Below are positions 2 through 8,580 of a stretch of DNA of 9,498 nt, piece after piece. The DNA comes from Sediminibacterium sp. (GTDB lineage Bacteria; Bacteroidota; Bacteroidia; Chitinophagales; Chitinophagaceae). Below the pieces are notes generated by a model. It was not told the origin of the DNA. It was given only the letters and a program-made list of their open reading frames with translations, and ran no database searches. Position 1 is the first letter of the stretch, and each line of letters opens with the position of its first letter. Location of the stretch: positions 1-9,498 of the forward strand of contig JAQBNJ010000007.1 of assembly GCA_028288645.1 (NCBI GenBank). The letters run 5' to 3'. Made by a program: the position numbers and the translations under genes.

Positions 2-712
2 GATGGAACTTTTTTATCGAACGAGATAACTAAAATATATAAGGCAGATGGCTTACCCGAGGATACGATCCATTTTACTTTTAATGGAACTGCCGGACAA
101 AGTTTTGGCGCCTTCAATACAAAGGGCGTAACGCTTGAACTGGAAGGCGATGCGAATGATTATTTTGGTAAAGGATTGAGCGGCGCAAAACTGATTATCT
201 ATCCATCAAAACAGGCGTCATTCGTTCCGGAAGAAAATATCATTATCGGCAATGTTGCGTTTTACGGCGCCACTTCCGGCGAAGCGTTTATCAGGGGAAA
301 AGCAGGTGAAAGATTTGCTGTAAGAAATTCCGGCGCCAATGTGGTGGTTGAAGGTGTGGGCGATCATGGTTGTGAATACATGACCGGCGGAACTGCAGTG
401 ATACTCGGCGGCACAGGTAGAAATTTCGCAGCGGGCATGAGCGGTGGTATCGCCTATGTATATGATGTGAACGGTGAGTTCGATCAATTGTGCAACAAAG
501 AAATGGTGGACCTCGATCCACTCGACCAGGCCGATGCGCAATTATTGAACGACATGATCACAAGACATTACGCCTACACGGTGAGCAGTGTCGCCAAATT
601 TGTGCTGGATGATTTTGATAACCAGTTGAAGAATTTTATCAAAGTATTCCCGAGAGATTATAAGAAAGTGTTGATAGAGGCAAGTCAAAAATCAAAAGTC
701 AAAAGCAAATAA
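2..712 (+). CDS. gltB: Glutamate synthase large subunit (GOGAT alpha), C-terminal part, 5' truncated by window edge
   Basis: The open frame runs in from the window edge with codons starting at base 2 and ends at TAA 710-712, giving 236 residues. This is the C-terminal GXGXG beta-helix domain of glutamate synthase: it contains GDANDYFGKGLSGAKL, then glycine-rich repeats (FYGATSGEAFIRGKAGERF, GGTAVILGGTGRNFAAGMSG) and the typical closing helices (LLNDMITRHYAYT, IKVFPRDYKKVL). In this family the large subunit hydrolyses glutamine at an N-terminal amidotransferase domain and channels ammonia to an FMN/3Fe-4S site that reduces 2-oxoglutarate to glutamate; those domains lie upstream of the window. 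A TTG at 176 is an internal leucine codon, not a start. gltD follows after 96 bp, so the two are probably cotranscribed. The last nine or so residues (SQKSKVKSK) are low complexity and encoded by a heptamer repeat (682-709), so they are probably not part of the ancestral protein. Confidence 0.96.
   Translation, partial: DGTFLSNEITKIYKADGLPEDTIHFTFNGTAGQSFGAFNTKGVTLELEGDANDYFGKGLSGAKLIIYPSKQASFVPEENIIIGNVAFYGATSGEAFIRGKAGERFAVRNSGANVVVEGVGDHGCEYMTGGTAVILGGTGRNFAAGMSGGIAYVYDVNGEFDQLCNKEMVDLDPLDQADAQLLNDMITRHYAYTVSSVAKFVLDDFDNQLKNFIKVFPRDYKKVLIEASQKSKVKSK
682..709 (+). repeat. Heptamer array 1 (AARTCAA-type, 4 units) inside the gltB 3' end
   Basis: Four contiguous 7-bp units begin at 682, 689, 696 and 703. 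The first three fit AARTCAA and the fourth is AAGCAAA. The array stops directly at the gltB stop codon (710-712) and encodes the lysine/serine-rich tail of GltB. The 7-bp period shifts the reading frame with each unit, so this is a DNA-level repeat rather than a protein repeat. No inverted partner is visible nearby. Confidence 0.7.
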
Positions 713-714
713 TT

Positions 715-775
715 ATTTTAAATGTTGAATGCTAAATTTTAAATGAGAAGGGTTATCAATTCAACATTTAAAATT
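715..775 (+). repeat. Heptamer array 2 with inverted arms, gltB-gltD spacer
   Basis: Four + strand heptamers begin at 721, 728, 735 and 742, each starting with AAT (for example AATGTTG, AATGCTA). Three heptamers of the same kind lie on the minus strand in 755-775. Together they make a perfect 16-bp inverted repeat, 715-730 with 759-774, around a 28-nt loop. The stem is almost all A/T and has no U-tract after it, so it is not a convincing intrinsic terminator. It could modulate gltB-gltD mRNA processing, which is speculation. Confidence 0.7.
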
Positions 776-777
776 CA

Positions 778-793
778 TCCCGGGTAATCGGGA
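778..793 (+). repeat. Small GC-rich hairpin upstream of gltD
   Basis: TCCCG (778-782) pairs with CGGGA (789-793) around a 6-nt loop, 15 bases before the gltD ATG. The stem is short and GC-rich. It could be a small intergenic palindrome or could affect gltD translation; nothing in the sequence decides between these. Confidence 0.4.
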
Positions 794-808
794 CAAAATA
801 AAGAGAAG

Positions 809-6071: not shown

Positions 6072-6084
6072 CCCCATCTTCCCG

Positions 6085-6092
6085 TATTTTTG
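6085..6092 (+). promoter_or_regulatory. Candidate -7 promoter box for priA
   Basis: TATTTTTG matches the Bacteroidota -7 consensus TAnnTTTG exactly and lies 16 bases before the presumed TTG start of priA. The nearest upstream TTG (6056-6058, inside heptamer array 4) is 26 bases away, longer than the usual spacing of about 19-21, so the -33 part is unsupported. If used, the priA leader would be very short. Confidence 0.35.
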
Positions 6093-6108
6093 ATCAAATT
6101 CCTTCCAT

Positions 6109-8547
6109 TTGTTTGTTGAAGTCATCATACCTCTTGCTTTACCTAAAAATTATACATGGGCAGTTCCTGTATCTATGCAGGATGCCATACAACCCGGTAT
6201 TCGCGTAGAAGTAGTGTTGGGAAAGAATAAGAGATACGCAGGCATCGTAAAAAAAATAGTTGCGAAACCGGAAGCATTTCAGCCAAAAGAGATCCTGAAT
6301 GTACTGGATGCCGAACCATTGGTTTATTTCAAACAATTGCAACTCTGGGAATGGATAGCACAATATTATATGTGCAGCGAAGGCGAAGTGATGCAGGCCG
6401 CCATACCTGCCAATCTCAAATTATCAAGCGAAAGCATTTTAATATGGAACGAAGAAAGAAGTTATGATTTCAGTGACCTCTCTGATTCGGAGTATCTGGT
6501 TGCCGAAGCATTGGAAATGAAAAAAGAACTAAGGCTGGGTGAAGTGCAACAACTGTTAGATGCATCGAATGTATATCCTGTTATAAAAAAACTGATCGAG
6601 AAAGGGGTTTGTCATGTGTGGGAGGAGTTGAAAGAAAAATATAAAGCAAAAACGGAGACCTATATCACGCTTAATACCATTTATCACAACGAAGATAAAT
6701 TAGCCGACCTGCTCAATAACTGGAGTAAAGCGCCCAAGCAAATGGAACTGCTGCTCTCCTATCTGCACCTGGTAAAAACAGAAGGTGAAGTAACACAGCC
6801 GCAACTGCTGAAGAAATCAAACGCAACAGCTGCACAATTAAAGGGGTTGTGTGATAAAGGAATTTTGCTTGCTGAAAAAAGAGCCACCGACAGGATCCGG
6901 TCACTTCCAAAAGATATTCAGATCGATTTTATTTTATCGGAAGCACAGGAAACAGCATTGGCTGAAGTGAGAAAAGGTTTCACAGAAAGGCCTGTTTGTT
7001 TGCTGCATGGCGTTACAGCAAGCGGCAAGACTGAATTGTACACCAAATTGATCGAAGAATATATCCTGCAGGGAAAACAGGTACTGTATATGTTACCAGA
7101 GATCGCGCTCACGGCTCAGATCATCCGGAGATTGCAGAAACATTTTGGCGGATATATTACGATCTATCATTCCAAATTTAATCCCAATGAACGGGTAGAG
7201 ATATGGAACAAAATAAAAAGCGGTGAAACAAAAGTGGTGCTGGGCGCACGCTCTTCGCTTTTTCTTCCATTCAAAGATCTTGGCTTAATTATAGCTGATG
7301 AAGAGCATGATGCCTCCTATAAACAACAGGAGCCTGCGCCACGTTACCATGCAAGGGATGCAGCCATTTATTATGCTTCGTTAACCAACGCCAATGTATT
7401 GCTTGGCAGCGCTACCCCATCCATCGAAAGCTATTACAATTGTGAACAGCATAAATATTCGTTGGTAAGATTAGATGAACGGTACGGGAAAGTAGAACTG
7501 CCACAGATCTCCGTTATCGATCTCAAAAAAATTCCCACCAAAGAAAAAGGGAAGATCGCATTGACACCAATGCTGATCAGCGCCATCGAAACATCTTTGC
7601 AGCAGAAAAAACAGGTGATCTTATTTCAGAACCGGAGAGGTTATTCGCCCTACCTGATCTGCAATACCTGTGGATGGATACCCCAATGCCAGCATTGCGA
7701 TGTAACGCTTACCTATCACAAAGCGAAGAATGCACTGACCTGTCATTACTGCGGCACGTCATATCCCGTGATCAATACCTGTGCAGCATGTGGCAGCCAT
7801 AATTTCAATCAAAAGAATTTCGGCACGGAAAAAATTGAAGAACTGGTAGCAGAAACTTTTCCAAATGCCAAGATCTCGCGGATGGATTATGACAGTGTGA
7901 AAGGAAAGAACGACCATGATGCACTCATCAAGTTATTTGAACAGCAGCGGATAGATATTTTAGTAGGCACACAAATGGTAGTAAAAGGACTGGATTTTGA
8001 ACACGTGAATTTAGTCGGCATTATTGATGCGGATGGCATTTTAAATTTCACGGATTTCCGTGTGAATGAACGCGCTTTTCAATTAATGGAACAGGTGAGC
8101 GGCCGCGCCGGGAGGAAAGATGGGAAAGGAACGGTGTTGATACAGGTGAGTAATCCAGTACATCCCGTTCTACAGTTTGTGAAGGAACACGATTTTACAC
8201 GCCTCTTCCAATACGAGATAGCCAACAGGAAACAATTTGATTATCCTCCCTTCACACGGCTGATACAGGTTACTTTCAAACACAAGGAAAAACATCTTGC
8301 GGAAGAAGCGGCCAATATTATGATGCAGGGATTGAAAAAAGATTTTGGCGCTGAATGCAATGGTCCCGCGCAACCGGTTGTTGACCGCGTTCGCAATCAA
8401 TACCTTTGGGAGATCCTGATCAAATTGCCGAAAGACACCAGCCGTATCAATCTTTGTAAAAGAGAGATACAGCAGCAGGCCGTAATAATACAATCTAATA
8501 AACGGTATAGAAGCGTTACGATATTGCCGGATGTGGATCCTGTGTGA
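6109..8547 (+). CDS. priA: Primosomal protein N', replication-restart helicase PriA
   Basis: This 812-aa superfamily 2 3'-5' DNA helicase restarts stalled forks by loading the replicative helicase. The N-terminal DNA-binding domain starts FVEVIIPLALPKNYTWAVP. Walker A is GVTASGKT (301-308, K307) and the DEAH-type Walker B is DEEH (397-400). The PriA zinc module has all eight cysteines (C518, C521, C527, C530, C545, C548, C558, C561). QVSGRAGR (662-669) is helicase motif VI. It is longer than E. coli PriA (732 aa), mainly between the N-terminal and helicase domains. Start choice: an in-frame TGA at 6091-6093 bounds the gene on the left and there is no in-frame ATG before residue 23, which lies past the first conserved strand, so TTG 6109 is the likely start. 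No Shine-Dalgarno is apparent. It lies 56 bp after plsC and 45 bp before murB. Confidence 0.95.
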   Translation: MFVEVIIPLALPKNYTWAVPVSMQDAIQPGIRVEVVLGKNKRYAGIVKKIVAKPEAFQPKEILNVLDAEPLVYFKQLQLWEWIAQYYMCSEGEVMQAAIPANLKLSSESILIWNEERSYDFSDLSDSEYLVAEALEMKKELRLGEVQQLLDASNVYPVIKKLIEKGVCHVWEELKEKYKAKTETYITLNTIYHNEDKLADLLNNWSKAPKQMELLLSYLHLVKTEGEVTQPQLLKKSNATAAQLKGLCDKGILLAEKRATDRIRSLPKDIQIDFILSEAQETALAEVRKGFTERPVCLLHGVTASGKTELYTKLIEEYILQGKQVLYMLPEIALTAQIIRRLQKHFGGYITIYHSKFNPNERVEIWNKIKSGETKVVLGARSSLFLPFKDLGLIIADEEHDASYKQQEPAPRYHARDAAIYYASLTNANVLLGSATPSIESYYNCEQHKYSLVRLDERYGKVELPQISVIDLKKIPTKEKGKIALTPMLISAIETSLQQKKQVILFQNRRGYSPYLICNTCGWIPQCQHCDVTLTYHKAKNALTCHYCGTSYPVINTCAACGSHNFNQKNFGTEKIEELVAETFPNAKISRMDYDSVKGKNDHDALIKLFEQQRIDILVGTQMVVKGLDFEHVNLVGIIDADGILNFTDFRVNERAFQLMEQVSGRAGRKDGKGTVLIQVSNPVHPVLQFVKEHDFTRLFQYEIANRKQFDYPPFTRLIQVTFKHKEKHLAEEAANIMMQGLKKDFGAECNGPAQPVVDRVRNQYLWEILIKLPKDTSRINLCKREIQQQAVIIQSNKRYRSVTILPDVDPV

Positions 8548-8580
8548 GGATGCTGGATGCTGGATACTGGATGTTGGATA
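8548..8580 (+). repeat. Heptamer array 5: GGATRYT units between priA and murB
   Basis: Four full units begin at 8548, 8555, 8562 and 8569 (GGATGCT twice, GGATACT, GGATGTT), plus a partial GGATA. The array begins at the base immediately after the priA stop codon (8545-8547) and ends just before the murB ribosome binding site. No inverted arm is visible. Confidence 0.85.

What the first reader, a model, noticed from the sequence alone, without database searches (positions are those of the whole stretch)
682..8580. Five unrelated heptamer (7-bp period) arrays in four of six gene junctions
Arrays at 682-709, 721-775, 3926-4008, 6016-6071 and 8548-8580 all keep an exact 7-bp period but use different words: AARTCAA, AATNNNN, AAGTNNT, GWCNATN and GGATRYT. 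Within each array some positions are invariant and others free. The shared property is the period rather than the sequence, which suggests one generating mechanism (slippage or template copying with a 7-nt step) or selection for helical phasing. The closest thing I know of is the heptanucleotide STRR repeats of heterocystous cyanobacteria; I know of no named Bacteroidota family. The units were read directly; the common mechanism is inference.
Basis: partly seen in the sequence, partly recalled or inferred. Interest (0 to 1): 0.75.

Follow-up and report, generated by a model that had tools for sequence, protein, structure and literature searches.

The report
Facing pairs of seven-base repeat arrays
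In this Chitinophagaceae bacterium and some of its relatives, many gene junctions carry short arrays with a seven-base period, often as pairs that face each other and usually with the G-richer strand pointing inward, and these arrays likely grow by copying slips rather than serving as a specific signal.

Summary
The 7-bp period is real (4 strong runs in the window; mean 0.02 in 60 shuffles) and genome-wide: 19 arrays in 183 kb of this genome, against 0 to 3 at each other period from 5 to 11. Two details change. The array at 682-709 is the coding tail of gltB. Three of the other four are facing pairs: a word on the left, its reverse complement on the right. Pairs keep one orientation: the G-richer strand runs towards the partner in 35 and away in 1 of 44 matching pairs, 13 against 0 of 29 non-matching neighbours, and 8 of 8 at period 8; ordinary inverted repeats show no such rule. 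Orthologous junctions are mostly empty, or hold another word, or differ by exactly 7 or 21 nt. I read this as slippage growth on pairs seeded at facing 3' ends; the seeding is inferred and no enzyme was found. Facing heptamer pairs are in print for one word in Xanthomonas; many words under one orientation rule, and in Chitinophagaceae, I did not find in my searches.

The parts
682..709 (+). Weak period-7 stretch (AARTCAA) inside the 3' coding end of gltB; encodes a Lys/Ser-rich tail, probably not part of the class
721..745 (+). Left arm (AATGTTG/AATGCTA units) of the facing pair in the gltB-gltD junction
   Evidence: hairpin z -4.7 for 713-800; same word in L065, with a 7-nt difference read by eye
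760..776 (-). Right arm (TTCAACATTTAAAATT) of the gltB-gltD pair
3926..3958 (+). Left arm (AAGTNNT, G-richer) of the facing pair in the amtB-porin junction
3959..3976 (.). Loop between the arms of the amtB-porin pair
3977..4012 (-). Right arm (ACTTANN, C-richer) of the amtB-porin pair
   Evidence: hairpin z -7.4 on + and -6.1 on -
6016..6040 (+). Left half (GTCAATG GACCATA GTCCATC GTCC) of a nearly loopless pair at the acyltransferase-priA junction; supplies part of the acyltransferase C-terminus
   Evidence: no array in 25 of 26 relatives
6041..6071 (-). Right half (ATTGACT ATTGACT ATTGACC ATGGACT) of the same pair; carries the acyltransferase stop codon at 6050-6052
8548..8580 (+). Single unpaired array GGATRYT directly after the priA stop codon and before murB
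   Evidence: no array marked in 25 relatives; no hairpin

Best explanation
Four of the five arrays belong to a class of intergenic 7-bp arrays that in this genome mostly occur as facing pairs (three of them do here) and that likely grow and shrink by replication slippage in 7-nt steps. Shown: the period; the facing layout; the orientation rule (G-richer strand 5'-to-3' towards the partner); many words per genome, one of them (GGATRYT) shown at many loci; absence from, or another word in, the same junction of most relatives read; 7-nt and 21-nt length differences between orthologues; neighbouring units more alike than in permuted order. Inferred: a pair is seeded when both facing 3' ends of a broken or gapped junction are extended by copying a C-rich template, usually the same word for both ends; afterwards each arm turns over by itself through slippage, so unit order in the arms is not mirrored. 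The arrays would be tolerated intergenic growths, not sequence-specific signals.
For: Period spectrum: own genome 19 at period 7 against 0, 0, 3, 2, 0, 0 at periods 5, 6, 8, 9, 10, 11 in 183 kb; E. coli K-12, 100 kb, none at period 7. Inverted partner within 150 bp for 19 of 22 own arrays, 14 of 45 in G055, 20 of 58 in 80 named loci, 3 of 6 in further genus loci; about 0.2 expected in each set. Orientation: +- 35, -+ 1 of 44 inverted pairs; +- 13, -+ 0 of 29 non-matching neighbours; non-heptad inverted repeats do not follow it; period-8 inverted pairs 8 of 8 +-. Arms independent: own pairing score 19.0 against 18.4 with permuted unit order, above the permuted mean in 13 of 24 (G055 7 of 11, others 2 of 9). 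Slippage: 7-nt difference in gltB-gltD and at a second site, 21 nt in frame in a coding array; adjacent-unit identity 0.817 against 0.785 permuted, higher in 44 of 67 arrays, Wilcoxon p 0.0003. Recurrence: one own junction holds GGATRCT in G000 and (by eye) G092, GTGAGTA in G109, GGTCTNN in G090, and no array in G102, G100 and G119; a second own junction has no period-7 array in any of 10 relatives. Placement: 175 of 187 arrays intergenic, in all junction types.
Against: Slippage alone explains neither the fixed orientation nor one word at many unlinked loci, so the seeding step is conjecture and no enzyme was found: Ku and RVT_1 do not track array density. Same-word arms dominate in the window's genome (24 inverted pairs, no non-matching neighbours), which also fits insertion of a ready-made hairpin. 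Unit likeness does not decay with distance in G055. Of the non-matching neighbours 16 of 29 are ++ or --, and 8 of the 44 inverted pairs are neither +- nor -+. In relatives outside the window's genome most arrays have no inverted partner. Loop ancestry could not be settled.
Confidence: 0.5

Rival explanations
1. REPIN-like mobile hairpins: each pair is a miniature element moved in trans by a Y1 (RAYT/IS200-type) transposase; the arms later drift and slip.
For: Facing arms of the same word, a dispersed family, lineage-specific bursts (GGATRYT x3 in 3 of 61 genus genomes), empty junctions in relatives. Y1_Tnp matches over the cut-off: G055 7, G000 4, G106 4, G058 2, G069 1, G092, G024 and G022 0; against array density Spearman 0.70, p 0.051, n 8. 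Five further genomes without a density figure: G109 2, G090 2, G102 1, G119 0, G100 0.
Against: Flanks of 12 Y1 loci read (5 in G000, 5 in G055, 1 in G069, 1 in G058): several carry palindromes of their own and the nearest heptad array is about 1 kb away. No conserved loop or tip seen; non-matching pairs exist; arms are not mirrored copies.
Confidence: 0.2
2. Selected RNA hairpins: bidirectional terminators or mRNA-stability elements between genes, with sequence free but pairing kept.
For: Folds better than shuffles at three of four window sites; nearly always intergenic; by eye often fill the stop-to-start gap.
Against: By eye no T run directly follows the arms; the terminator scan lists no array hairpin but sees only loops of 3-8. 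Convergent junctions are not clearly favoured (with arrays: own 6 of 24 convergent, 16 of 78 tandem, 3 of 27 divergent; G055 8 of 27, 26 of 130, 5 of 27; G106 1 of 11, 5 of 31, 3 of 11; named 2 of 115, 30 of 694, 3 of 149). Pairing needs no fixed orientation; arrays without an inverted partner are common in G055; relatives keep the same gene order without arrays.
Confidence: 0.15
3. Telomerase-like addition: a reverse transcriptase copies short RNA templates onto DNA 3' ends, as DRT10 makes tandem-repeat cDNA.
For: Facing G-richer 3' strands, a fixed 7-8 nt step, several words per genome; array-rich G055 has RVT_1 matches; one DRT10 makes 9-nt repeats from an RNA template (PMC12632851, abstract and one section read).
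Against: G106, 99% complete and array-rich, has no RVT_1 match; G000 (57% complete) none, while array-poor G058 has three matches and G069 two. Neighbour-biased unit likeness points to copying of neighbours, not of a fixed template. DRT10 products are reported as protein-linked single-stranded DNA.
Confidence: 0.05
4. Sites for a regulator, or helical phasing of bends.
For: Fixed period and partly invariant positions.
Against: Words differ between relatives at the same junction; a period-8 class exists; periods 10-11 are rare.
Confidence: 0.05

Closest known systems
GGGAATC heptamer repeats of Xanthomonas (Rehm et al. 2015, PMC4692102; two results sections and the discussion read, other passages seen)
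   Same: Intergenic 7-nt arrays with partly free positions; 70 and 75 cases of two arrays in convergent orientation; located close to gene ends; length variation between species
   Different: One G-rich word suited to quadruplexes; here many words per genome, a period-8 class, and the same orientation across words; another phylum
TAACTGA heptamer repeats of Beggiatoaceae, Cyanobacteria and some Bacteroidetes (MacGregor 2015, PMC4679880; abstract, introduction and three sections read)
   Same: Intergenic heptamer direct repeats, 7-nt length steps between strains, shorter repeat-free junctions in some close relatives, mixed heptamers in some Bacteroidetes
   Different: One word studied, almost always as direct repeats and mostly just upstream of start codons in the focal genome; no orientation rule in the parts read
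Long simple sequence repeats of prokaryotes (Mrazek et al. 2007; not read, known here through the two papers above)
   Same: Heptanucleotides quoted as the most abundant class in most genomes; polymerase contact length proposed as the reason
   Different: No facing pairs or orientation in what was quoted
REPINs and RAYT transposases (Bertels and Rainey 2011, PMC3116915; abstract and two sections read)
   Same: Dispersed intergenic inverted doublets that form hairpins
   Different: REPs are conserved 16-mers found beside RAYT genes; heptad arrays do neither in the loci read
BrickBuilt MITE with a 23-nt minisatellite, Porphyromonas gingivalis (PMC4596501; abstract only)
   Same: Intergenic tandem repeat with small inverted ends, Bacteroidota
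   Different: One defined element; unit of 23 nt
STRR heptanucleotides of heterocystous cyanobacteria (recalled)
   Same: 7-nt intergenic tandem repeats
   Different: Not compared by sequence here

Membership tests
Prokaryotic heptanucleotide tandem repeats (long SSR) | Excess of 7-nt units over other unit lengths | tested here: met
Prokaryotic heptanucleotide tandem repeats (long SSR) | Unit number changes between relatives in 7-nt steps | tested here: met
   7 nt twice and 21 nt once
Xanthomonas-type convergent heptamer pairs | Two arrays facing each other on opposite strands | tested here: met
   3 pairs in the window
Xanthomonas-type convergent heptamer pairs | Word GGGNATC with G-tracts able to form quadruplexes | tested here: not met
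   No such word among the window arrays (units listed)
REPIN/RAYT | Inverted doublets dispersed in extragenic space | tested here: met
REPIN/RAYT | The same repeat flanks a Y1 transposase gene | tested here: not met
   12 Y1 loci read; nearest array about 1 kb away
REPIN/RAYT | Conserved arm sequence within a family | tested here: not met
   Unit order and number vary between loci
Telomerase/DRT10-like repeat addition | Reverse transcriptase present in array-rich genomes | tested here: inconclusive
   G106 none, G055 present, G000 none but 57% complete; Pfam RVT_1 only, so divergent RTs could be missed
Intrinsic terminator | G+C-rich stem followed by a T run | tested here: inconclusive
   No array hairpin in the scan, which is limited to loops of 3-8; no T run directly after the arms by eye
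Cyanobacterial STRR | The specific STRR words | not tested
   No sequence of these was fetched

The most novel reading that the evidence does not exclude
Facing heptad and octad arrays are fossil scars of a general bacterial 3'-end repeat-addition process: at a broken junction each facing 3' end is extended with G-richer 7-8 nt repeats and the two ends are then joined, leaving two telomere-like arrays that face each other. The same signature in Bacteroidota and Xanthomonas would make it a widespread, unrecognised repair outcome.
Probability: 0.12. Interest if true: 0.85.

Novelty: new variant of a known kind. Interest (0 to 1): 0.55.

Why it matters
Why bacteria favour 7-nt repeats has, in what I read, only a brief proposal (polymerase contact length, quoted in PMC4679880 and PMC4692102). 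An orientation rule that holds across different words, across periods 7 and 8 and in neighbours without detectable pairing is a constraint that plain slippage does not give. It can be tested by counting in any genome, and it separates hairpin selection from strand-specific synthesis. It also warns annotators: such arrays supply stop codons and C-termini (acyltransferase, 6016-6052) and can open spurious starts (the frame at 8557 begins inside the array).

Tried and rejected
RAYT mobilisation: looked promising by counts, but the Y1 flanks carry no heptads (one GTTTGTG pair about 1 kb from a Y1 gene). Telomerase/DRT10-like RT: no RVT_1 in array-rich G106. Ku-dependent joining: Ku present in array-poor G058, absent from array-rich G106, present in G055 and G092. 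Arms as inverted copies of each other: unit order little or no better than permuted. Transition-only variation suited to G-U pairing: ts/tv 2.0 in own arrays but 0.72 in G055 and 0.98 in the others, against 1.26-1.55 between related genomes. Loops as ancestral junction DNA: inconclusive. Gene-end polarity: unpaired arrays 26 away from the nearer gene, 16 towards, not convincing; arrays sharing a junction 80 and 26. Word sharing between genomes: 16 shared classes of 88 against a null mean of 6.7, maximum 14; a limited vocabulary, origin not settled. A looser first orientation count gave +- 29, -+ 2. Rfam: no hit in the window. Literature searches listed no paper that I recognised as being on such arrays in Chitinophagaceae or on one orientation across words; subscription papers are mostly not held.
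Full report
Setting. The window is contig C376 of a fragmented assembly (2.80 Mb, 571 contigs, 57% complete). Its nearest named relatives by PriA are Sediminibacterium roseum and Bacteroidetes/Chitinophagaceae MAGs at 87-88% identity. Genes by Pfam: gltB end (GXGXG), gltD-like (Fer4_20, Pyr_redox_2), ammonium transporter, beta-barrel porin (BBP2), acyltransferase, PriA, MurB, all on the + strand.

Observation. 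Period-7 arrays are present at the stated places. Lag-7 match over the junctions is 0.423, with harmonics at 14 and 21; shuffles give almost none. Corrections: 682-709 is coding DNA at the end of gltB, and by eye similar DNA ends gltB in several relatives. 721-775, 3926-4012 and 6016-6071 are inverted pairs that fold better than shuffles; 8548-8580 is a single array.

Genome-wide. In 40 sampled contigs of this genome (183 kb) there are 19 period-7 arrays, against 0, 0, 3, 2, 0, 0 at periods 5, 6, 8, 9, 10, 11. Density per 100 kb varies widely in the family: G055 22.5, G000 10.4, G106 9.1, G092 3.3, G024 2.2, G058 0.8, G022 and G069 0. E. coli K-12 has none at period 7 in 100 kb. In 80 named loci (1.42 Mb) period 7 has 58 and period 8 has 19; every other period from 4 to 24 apart from multiples of 7 and 8 has at most 5. 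In the loci examined 175 of 187 arrays are intergenic, at 25 of 129 junctions of the own-genome loci (some of these were picked for the word GGATRYT or for Y1 genes) and 39 of 184 in G055. Gene calls there are simple reading frames of 80 codons or more.

Facing pairs. 19 of 22 own arrays have an inverted partner within 150 bp, with about 0.2 expected; in G055 14 of 45, in the named loci 20 of 58, so pairing is the rule in the window's genome and common but not the rule elsewhere. Own loops are 10 to 80 nt and by eye share nothing, except two neighbouring elements in L002. Arms share a word family but not clearly the order of unit variants: own pairing score 19.0 against 18.4 with permuted units, above the permuted mean in 13 of 24; G055 19.0 against 17.8, 7 of 11; others 17.9 against 18.0, 2 of 9.

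Orientation. Scoring each array by G minus C, inverted pairs are +- (G-richer strand pointing at the partner) in 35 and -+ in 1 of 44; the other 8 have arms of equal sign or zero skew. By genome, +- of all: own 22 of 24, G055 5 of 9, G106 3 of 3, other named and genus loci 5 of 8. In the window and the 40 sampled contigs alone it is 13 of 15, with no -+ (counted from the list). Neighbours that match neither inverted nor direct are +- 13, -+ 0, ++ 7, -- 9; a few of these may be diverged forms of one word. The 15 direct neighbours include one -+. In G106 a GAGCTNN arm directly abuts a CATCCAG arm. Period-8 inverted pairs are 8 of 8 +-. Non-heptad inverted repeats from the same loci do not follow the rule: + against - is 22/17, 10/10, 3/3 and, in the named set, 51/80, a lean the other way. 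Base-pairing cannot set this orientation. Rehm et al. report 70 and 75 convergent pairs for one word in two Xanthomonas genomes, so the layout is not confined to this family.

History. At acyltransferase-priA 25 of 26 relatives have no array and one (L075) has a different, nested pair; at priA-murB none of 25 is marked (L065 has a short heptamer-like stretch by eye); at amtB-porin 1 of 17 has one, with another word; at gltB-gltD 3 of 18 are marked, one (L065) with the window's word and an exact 7-nt difference, one (L082) with another word, one (L067) over the gltB tail (27 loci given, those best aligned to the window, of the 80 named loci). Further length differences are 7 nt at a second junction and 21 nt in frame in a coding array. 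At another own-genome junction, read in 6 of 10 relatives searched, G092 has by eye the same word with shorter arms, G109 and G090 have other words, and G102, G100 and G119 have no array; at a second own junction none of 10 relatives has a period-7 array. The word GGATRYT is found three times in tandem in 3 of 61 genus genomes: G000 20 hits, G106 6, G092 1. G106 also has weak matches to the window's arrays at loci outside the syntenic region, while its acyltransferase-priA gap is short. I read this as a vocabulary of words that spreads to different junctions in different lineages.

Mechanism. Neighbouring units are more alike than permuted ones (67 arrays, 0.817 against 0.785, p 0.0003), and likeness falls with distance in two of three data sets. 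With the 7-nt steps this supports slippage as the growth process. Seeding and orientation need more. I infer extension of two facing 3' ends on a C-rich template followed by joining, because that gives facing G-richer arms, permits different words on the two sides and lets the arms evolve apart. This is not shown, and neither Ku nor reverse transcriptase tracks array density. Y1 transposases track it weakly but do not lie beside arrays.

Verdict. A known kind (heptanucleotide repeats; facing pairs known for one word in Xanthomonas) in a new variant: many words, two periods, one orientation rule, lineage-specific spread. Interest is moderate; the orientation rule is the part worth following.

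Noticed in passing
window 3896 and 4049 (CCTCTGACCAGG); also L063, L065, L067, L075, L083, L110 and, as CTTCTGACCAAG, L087, L088: A motif CCTCTGACCAGG or CTTCTGACCAAG recurs in the amtB-porin junction of many relatives, by eye in several as the loop of a stem whose arms differ between species (one search scanned only the first 80 of its loci). No Rfam match in the window.
   Followed up: partly
L261-L268, L273, L274: Y1 transposase genes of G000, G055, G069 and G058; by eye several are flanked by their own REP-like palindromes, different for each gene.
   Followed up: partly
own genome L013, L014, L222, L301; G055 L180; named L099, L139, L141; unpaired in L142: A parallel class with period 8 (AATTTTGG, GGATTGGC, GTATAAGA, GCTAATGT and others) with the same facing layout.
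   Followed up: partly
L069 8361-8393 and L135 2329-2359; L069, L073, L074 near 13250: Heptamer arrays inside coding DNA: one in a gene that I take for ispE from memory (21 nt longer in L135, in frame) and one in DNA like the window's murB (constant length).
   Followed up: partly
window 6016-6052: The array replaces the usual C-terminus and stop of the acyltransferase; in L075 a different array lies at the same place.
   Followed up: partly
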